A program made the position numbers and the translations under genes. This document shows positions 35,545-44,280 of a DNA stretch of 64,000 bases, piece by piece. This DNA comes from an uncultured Prevotellaceae bacterium (GTDB lineage: Bacteria; Bacteroidota; Bacteroidia; Bacteroidales; Bacteroidaceae): positions 1 through 64,000 of the forward strand of contig ONWA01000009.1 of the NCBI GenBank assembly GCA_900321425.1, given 5' to 3'. The number at the start of each line of letters is the position of its first letter. Position 1 is the first letter of the stretch. The notes under the pieces are model-generated. The model saw only the letters and a program-made list of their open reading frames with translations. It was not told the origin of the DNA and did not search any database.

Positions 35545-36471
35545 TTAAACGAGCCGTTTGTGACGGAAAATCCACCAGCAAAGGAAGGATACACCCACCG
35601 ACAAGATGATGGCAAAGATGAAGCCCCACGAGCTGTTCTCCATGCCGTTGATGAGGTTCATGCCGAAGAGTGAGGCGATGAGTGTGGGGAACATCATGAT
35701 GATGGTGACGGACGTCAGCGTACGCATCACCGTATTCATGTTGTTGTTGATAATACTCTGATAGGTATCCATCGTCGACTCCAAGATGTTGGAGTAGATA
35801 TTCGCCGTCTCGCGTGCCTGCGACATCTCGATGTTTACATCCTCGATGAGGTCGGCATCCAACTCGTCGATCTGCAACTTGAACTTCAGTTTCGAGAGCA
35901 GCGTCTCATTACCACGAATGGAAGTGACGAAATAGGTCAGCGAGTCCTGCAGGCGCGACAGACCGATGAGCGACTCGTTGTTCACCTCACGATCGAGGTT
36001 GCGCTTGGCTTTCTCAATCAGCATATTGATCTGCTTGAGGCGTTTCAGATACCATACGGCAGAGCTGAGGAACAGACGGAAGATCATATCGACATAGTCG
36101 GTGAATCCCTCGTTACGACGCTGCTGGAAGGAGACAAAGTCGATCATCATATTCGTCTCGTAATAGCACACCGTGATGGTGACATCGCGCTTATGGATGA
36201 TACCCAAAGGCACAGTGGTATAGGGGGTACGGCTGCGCACCTCCTTGACGTAGGGAATACGGAGGATGATGAGCATCCATCCGTCGTCGTACTCATAACG
36301 CGCACGCTCGTCGGTATCGCTGATGTCCGACAGGAAATAGTCGGGGATATTGAACTGCTCTTCCAGCATCTGCTGGTCTTCTTCGGTTGGACACGTCATC
36401 TGTATCCAACAATTGGGCTGCCACTCCTGAATGGGGTTCAGACCGCCTTGGGTATTCCAGTATGTCTTCAT
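35545..36471 (-). CDS. corA: CorA-family divalent metal transporter
   Basis: 308 aa. A large cytoplasmic N-terminal domain, a long helix, then two membrane helices at the end (LTSVTIIMMFPTLIASLF and WGFIFAIILSVGVSFLCWWIF) with the signature GMN (FGMNLINGMEN) between them. CorA forms pentameric Mg2+ channels. Unusual feature: a leader of about 150 nt with a mini-ORF and alternative hairpins. Confidence 0.92.
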   Translation of the reverse strand: MKTYWNTQGGLNPIQEWQPNCWIQMTCPTEEDQQMLEEQFNIPDYFLSDISDTDERARYEYDDGWMLIILRIPYVKEVRSRTPYTTVPLGIIHKRDVTITVCYYETNMMIDFVSFQQRRNEGFTDYVDMIFRLFLSSAVWYLKRLKQINMLIEKAKRNLDREVNNESLIGLSRLQDSLTYFVTSIRGNETLLSKLKFKLQIDELDADLIEDVNIEMSQARETANIYSNILESTMDTYQSIINNNMNTVMRTLTSVTIIMMFPTLIASLFGMNLINGMENSSWGFIFAIILSVGVSFLCWWIFRHKRLV

Positions 36472-36620
36472 TTTGCTAATCCGTGTTTAATGCACTGTTC
36501 ATGCATAATCCATAAAACTCGAGGCAAGAGGATTAGCGGTCTTGCCTACTATCCTCCGGCCTAACACTTGTAACTATTCGCCGGGTAATCGTCCATTTTT
36601 TTTTTGAATTTTTTGTTTAT
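36472..36620 (-). promoter_or_regulatory. corA 5' leader with 11-codon ORF and alternative hairpins
   Basis: On the minus strand the leader encodes MDDYPANSYKC and stops. Then AGGCAAGA/TCTTGCCT (8 bp, 10-nt loop) and GAGGAT/ATCCTC compete, since their right arms overlap by 2 nt. This resembles attenuator-type control of Mg2+ transporters, but the known Mg2+ riboswitch families were not recognised. Confidence 0.35.
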
Positions 36621-36626
36621 CGGTTG

Positions 36627-36658
36627 CAAAGATAAATAAAAAACGCAGATTCGCCAAA
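36627..36658 (-). promoter_or_regulatory. Promoter of corA
   Basis: On the minus strand TTTG (36655-36658), 20 nt, TATCTTTG (36627-36634). The -33 box lies in the loop of the upstream NRPS terminator. Confidence 0.65.
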
Positions 36659-36677
36659 CAAATCTGCGTTTTTTTCT
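36640..36677. terminator. Terminator of the NRPS operon
   Basis: AAACGCAGATT and AATCTGCGTTT form an 11-bp stem with A and T runs on both sides, so it can act in both directions. Confidence 0.8.
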
Positions 36678-36724
36678 ATCTCTGAGAGGATTTACACTCT
36701 CTGCAGAATCATTCCACTGAGCCT

Positions 36725-39700
36725 TTACTCGAAGAAGTAGAAGCCAGCAATCACCTGGAAGAAGCGGTCGACATAATCCCATGAGGTTGGCGACCACTGG
36801 AAGCCCATACGATACAGCACTTGCATGGTGTAGTCGTTGACCTCCTGTACTGAGAGCGCCTCCTGTCCATGGGTCAGGTCGCTATACGCCACGATACTCT
36901 GCAGGCGCTCGGCCTTCTGAGGATCGGCGGTCACCTCGTCGAGCGTCTTCAGATACTCGTCCATCTCTACCATCCGCACAGGTGTACCCACAGAAGCCAA
37001 CTCGCCAAGGACATCGCCCAGGAACACGTTGTGGTTGTTGTAGGGATGGAACATACAACACTCACGTGGTGTGGTGGACAACAGTCGGATGGCATGCGCC
37101 ACCTCGTTGATGGGCGAGAACTCCACAGGATCGGTAAAGCTACTGTAAGGACAGCAGCCCAACAGGCTATAGGCACGCATCCTACCAGCGAAGCTGTTGG
37201 TACGGAAGTTCACCTGGAACTCACCATCGGTACTGCGGGCGGCAAGGTTGCCCACTCGCATCACCTTACCCACGAGTCCCTTCGTGGCAACGGCATCGAG
37301 GACGATACGCTCAGAGATGTACTTCGAGAGCGTATATTGGTTGCCCAGATACTGGTTCTTGAACAGCTGCTGCTCAGTGAGGAAGGCAGCTTCGGCCGAC
37401 TCGCCATGCGTCAGGAAACCACCAACGCTGACGGTAGACACCTGAATCAGTTTGGCGCCCGTCTTCAGACAGAGGTCCACACAACGCTGCGTACCGTCGA
37501 TATTCACGCGCTCGATATCGTTATCCTTAGAGAAGTGTTTCACGATAGCGGCACAGTTGATAACGGTGGTCAGGTCAGCATCGCCACAGATGGCGCAGAG
37601 GTCGTCCGTAACATCGCCTTTGATCACACGCAGACGACCACTCTCGAAGAGATCATTGAAGGAAGAAGCGAAATAGTAATACAGGAGCGTCTGCAGACGT
37701 TTCTGTGCTCCCTCCTGACTCTCAGAACGTACCAGACAGGTGATCGTCGTGGCGTCGGAGTTGATGAGTTCATACACCAGGTGGATACCTAGGAATCCTG
37801 TGGCACCCGTCAGTAGCACATGACCTAACGCGAGGGGTGTTCCCTGCATGAAGGCATCCAACGTACCACCTGTCAGCACCTTGTCGATAGCGGTATAGTC
37901 GAAGTCCTTCACCTCCGACTCCAGCGTACCACTCGTCTCAGCCTGTCCGCCATTCAACAGCGTGGCAATCTGTCGAGGTGTAGGATTATCGAAAACATCG
38001 CCATAGGCTAGATGGTGTCCGATCTTATCCACATCGATGATCAGACGAGTGACAACGAGTGACGTACCACCCAATTCGAAGAAGTCATCAGTAGCACCTA
38101 CACGTTCCACTTGCAGGATGTTCGCGAAGATCTCACAGAGCTGTTTCTCCAGTTCGCCTGTTGGTGCCACATATTCCGTGGTGACAGACAGTTCAGGTTC
38201 AGGCAGTGCCTTCATATCGGTCTTGCCACTGGGGGTGGTAGGCATCTTGTCGAGTTGTAGGTAGGCCGTAGGAACCATATACTGTGTCAGACTCTTACCA
38301 ATCTCCACCTTCAACTCGTCGATGTCTACGGGATGGTTAGCGGTGAAGTATGCACAGAGATGTTCCTTACCGTTAATCTTACGGATCATCACTACCACCT
38401 GTCCGATACCCTCCTGTTGGGCAATCACACTCTCAATCTCTCCCAGTTCGATACGTAATCCGCGCAGCTTTACCTGGTTGTCGGTACGTCCCAGGATGCT
38501 GACGTAGCCGTGGTCGTCCCAACGCGCATAGTCGCCTGAGCGATACAACGTAGGATCGAGCGTATCGCCAGTGTCAAACGGATTGGGGATGAAAGCCTCA
38601 CGGGTCTTGTCTGGCAGATTGTTATATCCCAAACCTACCTGTGCGCCACCAATCAGCAGTTCGCCAACGACACCCACCGGCAGACGGTTCATATCGGCAT
38701 CAACGATGTATTCTGTGACATTCACCAACGGACGACCGATGGTAACGTGGTCTTCGTGAGTCACCTCGTGACTGTTGCTCTCCACCGTCGTCTCAGTAGG
38801 ACCGAAACTGTTGAAGAGATGACCCTTCATGGTCTTTTGCAGTTCACGCAACTGACTGTCGGAGAATTTCTCGCCACCTAGCTCGATGATGCGGCAACCA
38901 GCGAGTGCCTGACGGAAGACATCCGACTCGTAGAGCTGCATCAGACGAGAGGGCGTGCCCTGGAACATACCCACGTGGTTCTCAATCATAAACTGAGCCA
39001 GCAGGATGGGGTCATTGGTCATCTCGTCGCTGGCTAATGCCAGAGTGAGACCGTTGTATAAGGGGATACCGATTTCCTCGACAGAGGCGTCGAAGGAGAT
39101 GGTAGCCAGTCCGAGGATACACTCCACCTCCTGCATCACCGTCCAGTTGCGAAAGTTGAGCGGATGGGCAAAGAGCTCGTTACAGATACCACTATGATGG
39201 AGCATCACACCCTTAGGACGCCCTGTAGAGCCTGATGTATAGATAATGTATGCAAGATCACTACCTTCTTGTGGGATGGCAGGGTTGGATGTCTTCTCGC
39301 ATTGCAGCAGCTCCTCGATGTTAAGGGCTTTCTCCAACACCTTGACACTTCCCTCGCCTGCCTGCGTCTTCAGGTTCGCCAGGTTCTCATCGTCCGTAAC
39401 GATATAGGCCGCCTCGCTATCCTCAAGGATCAATTTGATACGGTCAGCAGGATAGTGCGGATCGCAGGGGATATACGCTGCACCAGCTTTCATGATACCA
39501 AACATCGTAAAGATCAGGCGACTGGTACGCGGCAGTAACATCGCCACACGATCACCCCGTTTCACACCATGTGCGATGAGGGCATGAGCCACACGGTTCA
39601 TCTCCGCATTCACCTGACGGAAGGTAAACGTTCCGTCGCAAGCCACCAGCGCTTTGGCATCGGGCTTCTGTTCGGCATTCGCCTCAACAGCCTGATGGAA

Positions 39701-42700
39701 CAGACGGGTGGGCACGTCGGCTGTGCCAGCCAGACGGAACGAATCAACCAGTCGCAACTGCTCGTCGCTGAGCATGGACACCTTGAGCAGACTACCCTTC
39801 GGCGCCTCCATGAAATGCTTCAGAACGCTGAGGAACGACTCGGCAAACCCTGCTATCGTCTTCTCACTATAGAAGGCATCATCGTACTCCAGACAGACGA
39901 CAGGTTGCCCGTTCTGCTGGATAATGATGATATCGAGCTTCTGTTTCGGCACATCCACCTCCAACGACTGGATGGCGATCTTCTCGCCACCAATGGTATG
40001 CTCTTCAAACACCCCCAACTGATACGTGTAGGTCGTATTGGCAGAGAAATCATAGTCGGCAGCAATACGCGCAAAAGGATACTGTTCGTGGCGCATCGTC
40101 TGCTCGAGATCCTGACTCGTGCGACGGATGAAATCCTCTACACTCTGTTCCTTTACAAATCCAGCCAACGGCAAGGTATTGACAAACATACCTGTCGTGT
40201 CGGACAGACGGAGGTTGGAACGTCCATTGCTGATGGTGGAGATATACACATGACGACTGTTGGTATAGCGTGACAGCGTGTAGTAAGACACAGCAAGCAT
40301 CATACTGGCTGGTGTCACATTCAACTGCTTACAGAACTCCTCCACTTTGGTAAAATCGAAAGGACGAACCACCTGTGCCACATGACCGTGAGCCTCACTG
40401 GGTGTGAAATCGTCAGTCAGTTCGGTACAACCCTCACACTCCTTCATCACCTCAGCAAAATAAGCCTTAGCCTCTTGGTATGCATCGCTACCCTCCGCCT
40501 GACGTTGTTCCTGTGAGAACTGCAGGAAACCTAAGCGCTCGCTCTCCAAGGTTTTCCCGTCAAGGACGTCGCATAGCTGATGGGCAAACAAGTCGAAGGA
40601 AGCACCATCGAAGATGAGGTGATGCACATCCATCAAGACAGCCACACGCTTCTCCGTCTGCACCACTTCCATGCGGTAGAGCGGACCACGCTCCAAGTGG
40701 AAAGGCAGGATGAATTGCTGCTGATAGGTGCTCAGCTCCTCTTCCGTCATTTCACGACGGCTCACCTGAGGCTCCATATCAGCATCGCACACCTGAATGA
40801 CATCATCGCCCTGAGTCTCGAAATGGATATTAAAGGCAGGATGGGCATTGATCAACTGTTTCAGTGCCTGTTCCACATGGTCACCATCTATACCCTTTGG
40901 AAAGGTGAGGAGCGTAGGGAGATTATAGGTTGTGTCAAGCGGATGCTTCATACACTCATAGTAGACACCCAACTGGGCATAATTGAGCGGAGCAGACGCG
41001 ATAGCATCCGTCGCTGACGCTTCACGATTGTTGGCAGCAGCCCTAGAGCCAGGAGTCATGAGTCCTTTCAGAATCTCGTTCTCGATATCCTGAAGGGTGA
41101 TGGTCTTCGCCATCGACTTCGCATCCAGTTCGATGCCATAGCGCTTGTTGACCTCTACCGCCAGTTTCATGGCAGTAATAGAGGTAAGTCCAGCACGTCC
41201 CAGCACGGTAGCAACGCCAAAGTCACTATTGCCCACCAGCTTGGAGATGATGGCGTGAAGGTCTTTCTCCAACACGTTCAATGGGTGCTGCTCCGACTGT
41301 TGCGAGTCGGTAGCCGCAGACCGAACAGGCTTTGGAAGGGCACGCTTGTCCACCTTATGGTTCTGGTTCAGTGGAATCGCATCAATCTGCATCGTCACCT
41401 CAGGCACCATATACGGTGGTTTCTTTTCAGAGACAAAGGCGTTCAGCGCCTCCACATCGACAGGAGCGTCGCTCACTACATAGGCAGCGATGTACTTGCC
41501 TGCACCTTCGCCTTCCGTATCGAAAGCATGAACGGTGGCGTCCTTGATACCAGGGAATTCACGGATCACAGCCTCCACCTCCTTCAGTTCAACACGGAAG
41601 CCGCGAATCTTCACCATACCGTCGCGACGACCTACGAACACCAGTTCGCCATCCTCACGTCGACGAACGATATCGCCCGTCTTGAAGATACGTCCCTGTG
41701 TGTCGTCCTCCATGACTTTCTGGGCAGTCAGCTCAGGGGCATTCAGGTATCCACGACAAACCTGTGGACCCAACACCCATAGCTCACCCTCTTCGCCAAC
41801 GGCAGCAGTGCGTCCATCAGCCGTCATCACAGCCAATGTCGTTTCGCCTAAAGGAGTGCCTATCACAGACTGTTCCTCACGCTGGGTCAGATAATGACCA
41901 GCAATACTTGTACACTCAGAACTGCCGTAGAAGTTGGCCATACGGATATGCTTGGGTGGTGTCAAAGGCGGGAGTGCCTCACCACCGCAGCTGAGTACCT
42001 CCAGCGAAGTGTCCTCATCCATATTGCCAGCAAACTGGAAGGCCATCATGGTGGTCATGAAGAGATGGGTAATTTTCTCCTTGCGGATATACGCCTTGAG
42101 CCGTTCCATATCATATCGCTCAGCATTATCGAGGATATGTACAGTAGCACCTAAGGAAAGGGCTCCCCACGTCTCGACGACAGTAGGTACAAAACCGAAG
42201 CTGGCATAATTAGCCACTCGGCTTCCAGTCTTCATCCCTAAGAACTGGGCGAAGGGCACAGACGAAGCGGCGACGTTACGCTGTTCCAGCATCACACCCT
42301 TGGGCTGTCCTGTGGTTCCTGAGGTATAGACCAGCATCAAAAGTCCTGCCGGATCAGGGTCTGCCAAAGGCTGGGTAGCTTTTGGCAACTGCGTCAAATC
42401 CTTCGTCAGGACGACGGGCGCAGTGACATCACCTAACAGGGGAAGCAGTTCCTCGTCAGCGATCAGCAGTTTGGCGTTGGCGTCATGAATCATGTAGTTC
42501 AAACGCTCCTTGGGGTACGTAGGATCGAGGGGCTGATAGGCACAGCCAGCCTTGAGTACGCCCAGAGGTGCGATAACCATCCACTCGCAACGAGGAATCA
42601 GGACACTCACAACATCTTCAGTGCCAAGCCCCTTTGATGCGACAAAGGCAGCAATACGGTCGCTAAGTTCATCTACTTCGGCATAAGTGTACTTTTTGCC

Positions 42701-42808
42701 TTGATATACTACCGCAAGATGTTCAGGCGTTGCTTGCGCCTGCTGACGGAACAATGCCGCAACGGTCTGTTGCGACTGTCGCTGTTTGCTAGATGTGTTT
42801 GTGTCCAT
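36725..42808 (-). CDS. Two-module nonribosomal peptide synthetase with reductase release (A-T-C-A-T-R)
   Basis: 2027 aa. A1 (about 15-495): YTSGTTGQPKG, NFYGSSE, FKTGD, KIRGFRVELKE, KVDKRAL. T1 (about 510-580): GLTSI, Ser543 for phosphopantetheine. C (about 606-1010): HHLIFDG at 729-735. A2 (about 1035-1535): YTSGSTGRPKG, SFDASVEE, NSFGPTET, YRSGD, SGKTDMKAL. T2 (about 1550-1615): ELGGTSLVV, Ser1583. R (about 1660-2027): LTGATGFLG, and YTLSK with Tyr1825 and Lys1829. It should join two building blocks and release an aldehyde (or alcohol or cyclic product) with NAD(P)H. A1 lacks the Asp that holds the alpha-amino group. Last gene of the operon with pepD. Confidence 0.93.
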   Translation of the reverse strand: MDTNTSSKQRQSQQTVAALFRQQAQATPEHLAVVYQGKKYTYAEVDELSDRIAAFVASKGLGTEDVVSVLIPRCEWMVIAPLGVLKAGCAYQPLDPTYPKERLNYMIHDANAKLLIADEELLPLLGDVTAPVVLTKDLTQLPKATQPLADPDPAGLLMLVYTSGTTGQPKGVMLEQRNVAASSVPFAQFLGMKTGSRVANYASFGFVPTVVETWGALSLGATVHILDNAERYDMERLKAYIRKEKITHLFMTTMMAFQFAGNMDEDTSLEVLSCGGEALPPLTPPKHIRMANFYGSSECTSIAGHYLTQREEQSVIGTPLGETTLAVMTADGRTAAVGEEGELWVLGPQVCRGYLNAPELTAQKVMEDDTQGRIFKTGDIVRRREDGELVFVGRRDGMVKIRGFRVELKEVEAVIREFPGIKDATVHAFDTEGEGAGKYIAAYVVSDAPVDVEALNAFVSEKKPPYMVPEVTMQIDAIPLNQNHKVDKRALPKPVRSAATDSQQSEQHPLNVLEKDLHAIISKLVGNSDFGVATVLGRAGLTSITAMKLAVEVNKRYGIELDAKSMAKTITLQDIENEILKGLMTPGSRAAANNREASATDAIASAPLNYAQLGVYYECMKHPLDTTYNLPTLLTFPKGIDGDHVEQALKQLINAHPAFNIHFETQGDDVIQVCDADMEPQVSRREMTEEELSTYQQQFILPFHLERGPLYRMEVVQTEKRVAVLMDVHHLIFDGASFDLFAHQLCDVLDGKTLESERLGFLQFSQEQRQAEGSDAYQEAKAYFAEVMKECEGCTELTDDFTPSEAHGHVAQVVRPFDFTKVEEFCKQLNVTPASMMLAVSYYTLSRYTNSRHVYISTISNGRSNLRLSDTTGMFVNTLPLAGFVKEQSVEDFIRRTSQDLEQTMRHEQYPFARIAADYDFSANTTYTYQLGVFEEHTIGGEKIAIQSLEVDVPKQKLDIIIIQQNGQPVVCLEYDDAFYSEKTIAGFAESFLSVLKHFMEAPKGSLLKVSMLSDEQLRLVDSFRLAGTADVPTRLFHQAVEANAEQKPDAKALVACDGTFTFRQVNAEMNRVAHALIAHGVKRGDRVAMLLPRTSRLIFTMFGIMKAGAAYIPCDPHYPADRIKLILEDSEAAYIVTDDENLANLKTQAGEGSVKVLEKALNIEELLQCEKTSNPAIPQEGSDLAYIIYTSGSTGRPKGVMLHHSGICNELFAHPLNFRNWTVMQEVECILGLATISFDASVEEIGIPLYNGLTLALASDEMTNDPILLAQFMIENHVGMFQGTPSRLMQLYESDVFRQALAGCRIIELGGEKFSDSQLRELQKTMKGHLFNSFGPTETTVESNSHEVTHEDHVTIGRPLVNVTEYIVDADMNRLPVGVVGELLIGGAQVGLGYNNLPDKTREAFIPNPFDTGDTLDPTLYRSGDYARWDDHGYVSILGRTDNQVKLRGLRIELGEIESVIAQQEGIGQVVVMIRKINGKEHLCAYFTANHPVDIDELKVEIGKSLTQYMVPTAYLQLDKMPTTPSGKTDMKALPEPELSVTTEYVAPTGELEKQLCEIFANILQVERVGATDDFFELGGTSLVVTRLIIDVDKIGHHLAYGDVFDNPTPRQIATLLNGGQAETSGTLESEVKDFDYTAIDKVLTGGTLDAFMQGTPLALGHVLLTGATGFLGIHLVYELINSDATTITCLVRSESQEGAQKRLQTLLYYYFASSFNDLFESGRLRVIKGDVTDDLCAICGDADLTTVINCAAIVKHFSKDNDIERVNIDGTQRCVDLCLKTGAKLIQVSTVSVGGFLTHGESAEAAFLTEQQLFKNQYLGNQYTLSKYISERIVLDAVATKGLVGKVMRVGNLAARSTDGEFQVNFRTNSFAGRMRAYSLLGCCPYSSFTDPVEFSPINEVAHAIRLLSTTPRECCMFHPYNNHNVFLGDVLGELASVGTPVRMVEMDEYLKTLDEVTADPQKAERLQSIVAYSDLTHGQEALSVQEVNDYTMQVLYRMGFQWSPTSWDYVDRFFQVIAGFYFFE

Positions 42809-42819
42809 AGGTTTTGTGT

Positions 42820-44280
42820 TTATTTTAGGGGTATATCCTCAAGTGTCTTCTTCAGCAACTCCCAGAAGGGAGCTACCGTCTCAATGAGGGCACGCTCCGT
42901 AGTGGTGTGCGGCGACTTCATCGTAGGTCCGAGACTGACGACGTCGAGCCAGGGGTACTTGCCCAGAATGACAGAGCACTCCAGTCCTGCATGATCCACC
43001 TGGATGATACCGTCCTTGTCAAACAGGTCCTTATACTCTTTTAGTAGGAGGTGAAGAATCTCAGAATCAGGATTGGGATCCCATCCGCCATAGCTACCAG
43101 CTGTCTCCACCTTCATGCCCGCCATATTGAAACAGCTCTCGAGCATGGTCACCACATAGTCTTTCATATCCTCACGACTGGAGCGTGCCAGGATCTTGAG
43201 GGAAGCCTTACCCTCACCGATATTGATGATGGCGAGGTTGCTGGAGGTCTCTACGACACTGGGATAGGCAGGGATAAAACGGATGACACCATCGTGACAA
43301 GCGTAGATGGCATCGATGAGGTTATCCTGGATCTCTACAGGCACCTCCTTCTTGGGTGTCTCCACCTCTTCTACGATAACCTCGATGCCCTGTGGTTCGA
43401 TGAGCTTGAACTCGTCATTGAACGTCTCTTTCCAGTCGGCGGCGATTTCCTGCAAGGCAGCGATATTCTCCTTCGGCAGCGTCAGCACAGCCTCAGCCTT
43501 GAAGGGGATGGCGTTACGCATATTGCCACCATTCCATGAGGCCAGACGAGCCTCCGTCTCAGCGATGGCCTCGCGTACAACCTGCACGAGCAGTTTGTTG
43601 GCATTGCCACGACCCTCATTGATTTCCAGTCCACTGTGTCCACCACGCAGATTCTTGATGGTCACACGTACAGCAGCATCGTCGGCATCAGTATCCACCT
43701 CCTGATAGTCGAGGGTGGCGGTCACGTCAATACCTCCTGCGGAGCCGATGACGAACTTACCCCAATGCTCAGAGTCGAGGTTCATCAGGATGTCGCCTTC
43801 CAATTCACCCTCAGGGAGTCCGTTGGCACCAAACATACCCGTCTCCTCATCGGCAGTAATCAGCGCGTTGATAGGACCGTGCTTTAAGGTCTTATCCTCC
43901 ATGATAGCCATGATGGCTGCTACACCCAGACCGTTATCGGCTCCAAGTGTAGTACCTTTCGCCTTCACCCACTCACCGTCAATCCAGGGTTGGATGGGAT
44001 CGGTCTCGAAGCAATGGGTACTCTCTGGTGTCTTCTGCGGCACCATATCCATGTGAGCCTGCAGGATGACACCCTTACGGTTCTCCATACCAGGAGATGC
44101 GGGCTTGCGCATCACGATGTTATCGGCAGGATCCTTAAAGGCCTCCACACCTACCTGCTTGGCGAAATCGAGCAGGAACTGTTGTACTTTCTCCAGATGT
44201 CCTGAAGGACGTGGAACTTGTGTGAGTGCATAGAAATTCTTCCAGATGCACTGTGGGTTTAGATTTTGAATTTCATTCAT
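42820..44280 (-). CDS. pepD: Aminoacyl-histidine dipeptidase PepD (M20C)
   Basis: 486 aa, normal length. Cytoplasmic zinc dipeptidase. Metal and catalytic motifs: LQAHMDMVPQ, GTTLGADNGLGVAA, ALITADEETGMFG, LNLDSE-type ILMNLDSEHWG, and the C-terminal DHAGLECSVI and SPHTTTERALIE. It cleaves Xaa-His and related dipeptides. It starts 3 nt after the YbhN-like gene and ends 11 nt before the NRPS gene, so it shares their transcript. Confidence 0.95.
   Translation of the reverse strand: MNEIQNLNPQCIWKNFYALTQVPRPSGHLEKVQQFLLDFAKQVGVEAFKDPADNIVMRKPASPGMENRKGVILQAHMDMVPQKTPESTHCFETDPIQPWIDGEWVKAKGTTLGADNGLGVAAIMAIMEDKTLKHGPINALITADEETGMFGANGLPEGELEGDILMNLDSEHWGKFVIGSAGGIDVTATLDYQEVDTDADDAAVRVTIKNLRGGHSGLEINEGRGNANKLLVQVVREAIAETEARLASWNGGNMRNAIPFKAEAVLTLPKENIAALQEIAADWKETFNDEFKLIEPQGIEVIVEEVETPKKEVPVEIQDNLIDAIYACHDGVIRFIPAYPSVVETSSNLAIINIGEGKASLKILARSSREDMKDYVVTMLESCFNMAGMKVETAGSYGGWDPNPDSEILHLLLKEYKDLFDKDGIIQVDHAGLECSVILGKYPWLDVVSLGPTMKSPHTTTERALIETVAPFWELLKKTLEDIPLK

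What the first reader, a model, noticed from the sequence alone, without database searches (positions are those of the whole stretch)
36725..42808. Stand-alone A-T-C-A-T-R nonribosomal peptide synthetase in a Prevotella-type genome
One 2027-aa protein holds two complete modules and a terminal reductase with intact core residues (Ser543, HHLIFDG, Ser1583, GATGFLG, Tyr1825/Lys1829). The sequence shows the domains; established NRPS knowledge says reductase release gives aldehydes, alcohols or cyclised imines and pyrazinones. Similar small NRPSs from gut anaerobes make protease-inhibiting dipeptide aldehydes. No phosphopantetheinyl transferase or exporter is next to it, so the product may stay in the cell or leave by diffusion.
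Basis: partly seen in the sequence, partly recalled or inferred. Interest (0 to 1): 0.85.

Follow-up and report, generated by a model that had tools for sequence, protein, structure and literature searches.

The report
Rumen Prevotella capped peptide-aldehyde synthetase
A Prevotella-like genome carries a one-gene, two-module peptide assembly-line enzyme whose first loading domain lacks the aspartate that normally grips an amino group, so it is predicted to make an acyl-capped amino-acid aldehyde, likely a protease inhibitor, rather than the cyclised dipeptides made by its best-known look-alike.

Summary
The chemistry needs revising. A1 has Val207 where amino-acid-loading A domains have Asp235. 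In 281 homologs a non-Asp residue there occurs in 66 of 106 first A domains of A-first proteins, 0 of 337 internal ones and 1 of 140 in C-first proteins, as expected if such domains load an amine-less acid that can only start a chain. Of 47 complete A-first two-module proteins, 44 have it. A2 has Glu at a position that binds the side chain in a Lys A domain. Best reading: likely an acyl-capped basic amino aldehyde, which could not close to a pyrazinone. Relatives are mosaics. The gene sits between pepD and a probable terminator; CorA follows pepD within 1.5 kb in 17 of 29 relatives, an NRPS in none. Lack of a phosphopantetheinyl transferase says little (assembly 74.7% complete). Substrates and product are untested; Val235 alone does not exclude an amino acid. 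New variant of a known kind.

The parts
36725..42808 (-). 2027-aa NRPS, A1-T1-C-A2-T2-R
   Evidence: ORF; Pfam domains; relatives of 2009-2066 aa at 83-87% identity with the same architecture
41324..42775 (-). A1 starter adenylation domain (residues ~12-495); pocket code V-P-V-F-L-C-F-S-I-K (Val207 at the Asp235 position)
   Evidence: alignments, motif positions, AlphaFold model pLDDT 82 with A-domain fold
42188..42190 (-). codon of Val207 (position 235 of the GrsA code)
   Evidence: alignment columns; index taken with the first three A1 offsets corrected by one residue
41039..41296 (-). T1 carrier domain, Ser543
39758..40993 (-). C condensation domain with HHLIFDG
   Evidence: PF00668
38189..39709 (-). 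A2 adenylation domain, code D-A-E-Q-I-L-S-V-E-K (Asp1240, Glu1244, Ser1334, Glu1343)
37934..38176 (-). T2 carrier domain, Ser1583
36728..37921 (-). R thioester reductase domain: GATGFLG, Thr1792-Tyr1825-Lys1829
   Evidence: closest solved relatives of T2-R are 6vtj (307 bits) and AusA R 4f6l (172 bits)
42809..42819 (-). 11-bp gap between pepD stop and NRPS start; no TAnnTTTG motif in the 200 bp upstream
42820..44280 (-). pepD-like M20 dipeptidase upstream of the insertion, a common gene of the genus (not a dedicated partner)
   Evidence: Pfam; matches at 65% identity or more, some partial, in 61 of 72 genomes of the genus
36638..36675 (-). probable intrinsic terminator, similar to one in pepD-CorA spacers of several relatives; here it follows the NRPS
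   Evidence: alignment of the window and 10 relatives, read by eye
36676..36724 (-). 49 nt after the NRPS stop without counterpart in the empty-site spacers; probably came with the insert
   Evidence: not seen by eye after the NRPS of eight relatives

Best explanation
The gene encodes an intact A-T-C-A-T-R peptide synthetase that likely joins an amine-less carboxylic acid, predicted to be loaded by A1, to one predicted basic amino acid (Lys, Orn or Arg) loaded by A2, and would release it through the R domain as an acyl-capped amino aldehyde. Shown by sequence: the domain order, intact catalytic residues, Val in place of Asp235 in A1, Glu at positions 239 and 331 of A2, purifying selection, the mosaic family, and the gene's place between pepD and a terminator-like hairpin where most relatives read have CorA next to pepD. 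Inferred: A1 takes a hydrophobic acid without an alpha-amine (short or branched fatty acid, or the keto/hydroxy analogue of a branched amino acid); C makes the amide; R does a two-electron NADPH reduction; the aldehyde has no free N-terminal amine, so it would not close to a dihydropyrazinone as AusA products do, and would stay an electrophile (or close through its own basic side chain), acting leupeptin-like on cysteine or serine proteases of neighbours. Expression would come by read-through from pepD; carrier priming would need a PPTase elsewhere in the genome.
For: (1) V207 at the Asp235 position. A review passage says Asp235 binds the alpha-amine, is a smaller aliphatic residue in two alpha-hydroxy-acid A domains, and is absent in the aryl-acid domain DhbE (PMC11253843 passages); another paper that keto-acid A domains typically have an aliphatic residue there (PMC10949194 passage). 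(2) Position rule in 281 homologs (window protein included): non-Asp235 in 66 of 106 first A domains of A-first proteins, 0 of 337 internal, 1 of 140 C-first first domains (Asn), 0 of 10 in proteins that begin inside a module. (3) The tree of 144 dereplicated A cores (18 non-Asp) needs 4 changes, at least 3 forced by starred branches, so the loss likely recurred; 17 of the 18 non-Asp rows are A-first starters. (4) 44 of 47 complete A-first two-module proteins have it, against 14 of 38 A-first three-module ones. (5) A2 has Glu at 239 and Ser at 322; in the Lys A domain Pls_A Glu217 binds the epsilon-amine with Thr and Ser, and in Arg/Tyr ApnA_A1 Glu204 and Ser243 orient the substrate (PMC11253843 passage; matching their numbering to position 239 is mine). 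(6) R domain intact. (7) dN/dS low in A1.
Against: McyG has Val at this position and is reported to activate L-Phe, so Val235 does not exclude an amino acid. Only 3 independent pairs are available on starred branches, so the phylogeny-corrected test of the position rule has no power. The homolog sets were all seeded with this protein (without A1), the lists are the best 120 of thousands, and the tree is a 'quick' one with warnings about long branches. 84 of 281 proteins were dropped as incomplete, and A pieces of 380 letters or fewer were not read. The A2 code has no printed match: a search with six recalled Lys/Orn/Arg codes found one paper, holding one Orn code (listing only, substrate labels recalled). 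The acyl substrate is not identified; R domains can also give alcohols. No product data.
Confidence: 0.55

Rival explanations
1. Conventional dipeptidyl aldehyde synthetase: A1 loads a hydrophobic alpha-amino acid despite Val235 (as McyG is reported to do), and the free-amine dipeptide aldehyde cyclises to a dihydropyrazinone/pyrazinone like the AusA products.
For: Same A-T-C-A-T-R order as AusA (PMC12153313 passage); the NCBIfam AusA model is the best hit, 977.9 bits; McyG precedent; the V/I-P starter clade groups with Asp235 A domains in the tree.
Against: Position rule: 0 of 337 internal A domains lack Asp235, hard to explain if Val235 domains loaded amino acids equally well; 44 of 47 complete A-first two-module proteins have the change. 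The AusA equivalog cut-off (2500) is missed.
Confidence: 0.25
2. Myxochelin- or siderophore-like: A1 loads an aryl acid (salicylate or dihydroxybenzoate), A2 lysine, R gives aldehyde or alcohol; the product binds iron.
For: MxcG (myxochelin synthetase) is among the NCBIfam hits (661.5 bits); A2 may take Lys; the aryl-acid domain DhbE also lacks Asp235.
Against: MxcG cut-off 2300 missed. A1 has the amino-acid-type A5 motif NFYGSSECT, not the motif QQVxFMAEGL given for aryl-acid domains in PMC11253843, and an apolar pocket without DhbE-type Asn235/Ser240. Aryl-acid biosynthesis genes were not searched for.
Confidence: 0.07
3. The R domain reduces by four electrons, so the final product is an acyl amino alcohol, not an aldehyde.
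For: Established knowledge: R domains do either; the sequence does not tell which.
Against: AusA, whose R domain is the second-closest in the PDB, releases the dipeptide aldehyde (PMC12153313 passage).
Confidence: 0.2
4. A silent or non-functional insertion, or an assembly artefact joining unrelated contigs at pepD.
For: Only 11 bp upstream and no TAnnTTTG motif in 200 bp, while 6 of 8 relatives have one between -150 and +60 of the first possible start; no PPTase found in the assembly.
Against: Both sides of the insert fit the native pepD-CorA spacer, which a single mis-join cannot give; frame intact and under purifying selection; 64 of 72 genomes of the genus have a PPTase.
Confidence: 0.07

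Closest known systems
AusA, aureusimine synthetase of Staphylococcus aureus
   Same: A1-T1-C-A2-T2-R order and reductive release (PMC12153313 passages); best NCBIfam hit; R domain second-closest in the PDB
   Different: 977.9 bits against a cut-off of 2500; AusA A1 loads L-Val and its dipeptide cyclises, whereas this A1 lacks Asp235; no AusB-type PPTase beside it; A2 predicted basic, not aromatic
Human-gut anaerobe NRPSs making dipeptide aldehydes/pyrazinones (Guo et al. 2017, recalled; seen only as cited in PMC12153313 passages)
   Same: Gut-type anaerobe host, small reductase-terminated NRPS
   Different: Predicted N-acyl cap from a non-amino-acid starter A domain instead of two amino acids
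T-R didomain structure 6vtj (Methanobrevibacter ruminantium by recall; the PDB name says only NRPS) and the mru0068/mru0351 NRPSs (PMC2812497 passages)
   Same: Closest solved T-R pair, 307 bits over 480 residues; rumen; a MatE pump beside both methanogen genes, as beside longer Prevotella relatives
   Different: Archaeal; two modules beginning with C (mru0068) or four modules (mru0351), each described in the text with a thioesterase end, though the legend of figure S8 speaks of a thioester reductase
Leupeptin (recalled)
   Same: Predicted product type: acyl-capped peptidyl aldehyde with a basic residue next to the aldehyde
   Different: Leupeptin is acetyl-Leu-Leu-argininal; this would carry one amino acid and another acyl cap

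Membership tests
Reductase-terminated NRPS | Terminal NAD(P)-binding R domain with GxxGxxG and Thr/Ser-Tyr-Lys after the last T domain | tested here: met
   PF07993 at 1666-1907; GATGFLG 1668, T1792, Y1825, K1829
AusA (aureusimine synthetase) | A-T-C-A-T-R architecture | tested here: met
   AusA order from PMC12153313
AusA (aureusimine synthetase) | NCBIfam NF047350 equivalog cut-off (2500 bits) | tested here: not met
   977.9 bits
AusA (aureusimine synthetase) | A1 that binds an alpha-amino acid through Asp235 | tested here: not met
   V207 at that position; that AusA A1 itself has Asp235 is recalled, not tested
AusA (aureusimine synthetase) | Partner PPTase (AusB, recalled as a PPTase) in the operon | tested here: not met
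   neighbours pepD, LPG_synthase_TM, CorA, DUF349; no PF01648 hit in the assembly
AusA (aureusimine synthetase) | Pyrazinone/dihydropyrazinone product | not testable with these tools
   needs expression and mass spectrometry
Aryl-acid A domain (DhbE/EntE type) | A5 motif QQVxFMAEGL in place of xNxYGPTE | tested here: not met
   NFYGSSECT in A1; motif from PMC11253843 passage
A domain for an amine-less acid (hydroxy/keto type) | Small or aliphatic residue in place of Asp235 | tested here: met
   rule from PMC10949194 and PMC11253843 passages
A domain for an amine-less acid (hydroxy/keto type) | KR domain for a keto-acid starter of a depsipeptide module | tested here: not met
   Pfam lists no separate reductase domain between A1 and T1; the NAD-binding type matches listed lie at 1663-1911
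Lys/Arg-type A domain | Acidic residue at 239 binding the basic side chain | tested here: inconclusive
   Glu1244 present; consistent with Pls_A and ApnA_A1, but no assay and no printed code match

The most novel reading that the evidence does not exclude
Rumen Bacteroidales share a combinatorial family of peptide-aldehyde synthetases in which starter A cores, whole modules and reductases are swapped, and which is built to avoid the pyrazinone fate: nearly all members cap the N-terminus, by a starter C domain or by a starter A domain that has lost Asp235, or else make tripeptides. The window's version makes a minimal leupeptin-like acyl-basic-amino aldehyde that blocks proteases of rumen protozoa or rival bacteria, and has been dropped into the pepD operon so that it is expressed with a housekeeping gene.
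Probability: 0.25. Interest if true: 0.75.

Novelty: new variant of a known kind. Interest (0 to 1): 0.55.

Why it matters
If right, the default guess for an A-T-C-A-T-R synthetase (dipeptide aldehyde that cyclises) fails for a rumen family, and one residue of the starter domain tells which members make stable capped aldehydes. Peptide aldehydes with a basic residue are classic trypsin/cathepsin inhibitors (recalled); protein breakdown and protozoal grazing in the rumen matter for nitrogen loss (recalled). PMC8241843 (passages) reports Prevotella NRPS clusters among 17 differentially expressed ones, 16 of which were higher in less feed-efficient steers; the passages name no products. The family is also a natural record of A-core, module and reductase exchange, useful for NRPS engineering.

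Tried and rejected
Functional link with pepD: rejected. pepD matches at 65% identity or more occur in 61 of 72 genomes of the genus (68 of 72 have some match at E <= 1e-50, 7 of them only a paralog at about 36-38%), and none of 29 same-genus loci has an NRPS match in the up to 1.5 kb read on either side.

Foreign composition as a sign of recent transfer: GC of the NRPS 53.2% (GC3 61.0%), pepD 52.7% (61.4%): no contrast.

Raw tally (113 of 119 genomes 'match') rejected as a count of the synthetase: many matches are single A domains of other enzymes. One-piece full-length matches within the genus are in 7 of 72 genomes (G000, G040, G019, G034, G036, G067, G009).

MAFFT columns for code positions 278 and 330/331 of A1-type domains were wrong and were re-read by hand from motifs (sequences); the first three A1 offsets printed are off by one (V207, P208, V211 are right).

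AlphaFold model of A1 and Foldseek: ordinary A-domain fold nearest LgrA and GrsA; does not name the acid. The genome-contig scan used only two peptide patterns, so its 14 loci are a part of what exists. Paper searches for Prevotella peptide aldehydes: none for 'Prevotella + peptide aldehyde + NRPS' or 'peptide aldehydes + gut bacteria + biosynthetic gene cluster + Prevotella'; most subscription papers are not held, and PMC9248904 and PMC7586950 were seen only as listings. 'leupeptin + rumen + protozoa + proteolysis' listed two papers, neither opened and neither on rumen protozoa by title, so the protozoa idea is recall only.
Full report
What is there. The ORF 36725-42808 (-) encodes 2027 aa without internal stops. 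Against four relatives at 83-85% identity dN/dS is about 0.03-0.2 in all six domains.

Where it lies. The assembly is G000, 74.7% complete, 68 contigs. Same-genus genome G040 has a contig of the same length (24,359) and ORF sizes as the record CAMKTS010000040.1, an uncultured Prevotella, so the genus is Prevotella-type by that link. The genome-contig scan, with two peptide patterns, gave 14 loci; L046 (Pedobacter, 24% identity) was dropped. Record titles of the closest name yak reticulum, sheep rumen, goat reticulum and the RUG series (RUG as rumen genomes is recalled). That the window itself is from a rumen is inferred from these. The order LPG_synthase_TM-pepD-CorA is native: among 29 same-genus loci read up to 1.5 kb around pepD, CorA lies downstream in 17 (about 1 kb away in L062) and an NRPS in none; the other 12 show DUF349 or no tested neighbour downstream. 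In the window the NRPS begins 11 bp after the pepD stop and ends before a hairpin-T-run that in several relatives follows pepD directly (by eye). It thus likely depends on read-through: no TAnnTTTG motif in 200 bp upstream, against 6 of 8 relatives with one between -150 and +60 of the first possible start (TAnnTTTG as the Bacteroidetes -7 motif is recalled). G040 has an empty pepD-CorA site (L051) and its own NRPS elsewhere.

A1 does not look like an amino-acid domain. The residue aligned with GrsA Asp235 is Val207, followed by Pro; the ten-residue code read by motif is V-P-V-F-L-C-F-S-I-K. Passages of PMC11355689, PMC11253843 and PMC10949194 say that Asp235 contacts the alpha-amine and is replaced by small or aliphatic residues in hydroxy- and keto-acid A domains; PMC11253843 also gives a counter-example, McyG (Val, L-Phe), and PMC10949194 a presumed keto-acid domain that keeps Asp235.

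A test of that reading. If such domains load acids without an alpha-amine, they can only sit first in a chain. In 281 homologs, the window protein included, from three searches (best 120 each) this holds: non-Asp in 66 of 106 first A domains of A-first proteins (59 V, 6 I, 1 M), 0 of 337 internal, 1 of 140 in C-first proteins (Asn), 0 of 10 in proteins beginning inside a module; the first 188 proteins alone gave 49 of 76, 0 of 274 and 1 of 112. A pieces of 380 letters or fewer were not read. The tree of 144 A cores dereplicated at 80% has 18 non-Asp rows, 17 of them A-first, and needs 4 changes, 3 forced by starred branches. It is a quick tree with long-branch warnings, and with only 3 independent pairs the corrected test cannot reach significance, so I treat the rule as strong but not phylogenetically proven.

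Hardly any free-amine dipeptide aldehydes. Of 197 complete reductase-ended proteins (84 of 281 dropped as truncated, without R or beginning inside a module), 112 are C-first (3 with one A domain), 58 A-first without Asp235 (44 two-module, 14 three-module), 24 A-first with Asp235 and three modules, and 3 A-first with Asp235 and two modules. One of these three, P0213, begins inside its A domain; P0272, which also has Asp235 and two modules, fell out, by elimination through the length filter. Within one search's own list, which was scored on T1-C-A2 and so was blind to A1, the figures are likewise 44 against 3 (52 complete proteins). The family thus seems to avoid the product that would close to a pyrazinone; that starter C domains add an acyl cap is established knowledge, not tested here.

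A2 and release. The A2 code D-A-E-Q-I-L-S-V-E-K has Glu1244 at position 239 and Glu1343 at 331. PMC11253843 describes Glu217 of the Lys domain Pls_A as salt-bridged to the epsilon-amine and Glu204 of ApnA_A1 (Arg/Tyr) as orienting the substrate (matching of numbering is mine). A basic residue is therefore likely, not shown. The same code occurs in all 20 relatives P0006-P0025 (83-87%) and in several three-module and C-first ones. The R domain is intact; whether it stops at the aldehyde is inferred.

A mosaic family. Per-domain identity to the window protein (P0001, 22 homologs compared): P0033 has A1 core 50% but A1 sub-domain 86%, C 82%, A2 core 94%, R 55%; P0047 has A1 core 73% but C 45% and A2 core 51%; P0002 (three modules) has A2 92-98%, R 83%. 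Starter cores, modules and reductases seem to be exchanged separately. L033 and L037 show it in place: nine flanking genes match at over 60% identity, yet one has a 2044-aa synthetase and the other a 3063-aa one plus a MATE pump. MATE homologs lie directly downstream in L037, L038, L040, L043 and L045, weaker ones (29-31% identity) directly upstream in L041 and L044; L039 has an RND trio. The two-module loci L033, L034, L036 and L042 show no exporter among the neighbours scanned (L042 only downstream; L035 matches L034 downstream).

PPTase. None by PF01648 in this assembly, but 64 of 72 genomes of the genus have one, so incompleteness is the likely cause.

A second synthetase. Contig C41 holds a C-A-T-R protein of 1433-1438 aa (code DAEGTGVDD, last position not covered), possibly a second route to capped amino aldehydes in the same cell.

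Verdict. Reductase-terminated NRPSs and A-T-C-A-T-R proteins are known; rumen Prevotella NRPSs are known in bulk (PMC8241843, passages). A family with a starter A domain that lost Asp235, predicted to give capped aldehydes, did not show in the listings, most of whose papers were not opened. I rate it a new variant of a known kind, with moderate interest until a product is seen.

Noticed in passing
window 36522-36596 (-), upstream of CorA 35545-36471: Conserved leader ORF MDDYPA[N/D/E]... (here MDDYPANSYKC*) in 16 of 17 CorA upstream regions checked (window and 16 relatives; L061 lacks it, L051 has ATA for ATG, L062 was left out), followed by a hairpin whose GCTAATCC could also pair with GGATTAGC just before the corA start: looks like an acidic/proline leader-peptide switch for Mg2+ uptake (MgtL analogy recalled). 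No Rfam match reaches its gathering score.
   Followed up: partly
G000:C41:20526-24821 (L077:8530-12831): Second NRPS of the same genome, one module C-A-T-R, downstream of a TonB-type outer-membrane protein gene and near a WYL-domain gene; only these neighbours were scanned.
   Followed up: partly
L033:7361-13495 and L037:6968-16159: Same chromosomal locus in two genomes (nine matching flanking genes), a 2044-aa synthetase in one, a 3063-aa one plus MATE pump in the other: in-place exchange.
   Followed up: partly
G019:C20 and G034:C61: A PPTase match lies about 2 kb and 12 kb from the NRPS match in these same-genus genomes.
   Followed up: no
P0087, P0139, P0259, P0280 (and P0160): Distant other kinds of non-Asp starter A domain (FYFVA-type and others) on different synthetases, apparently separate losses of Asp235; long branches make their place unsure.
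   Followed up: partly
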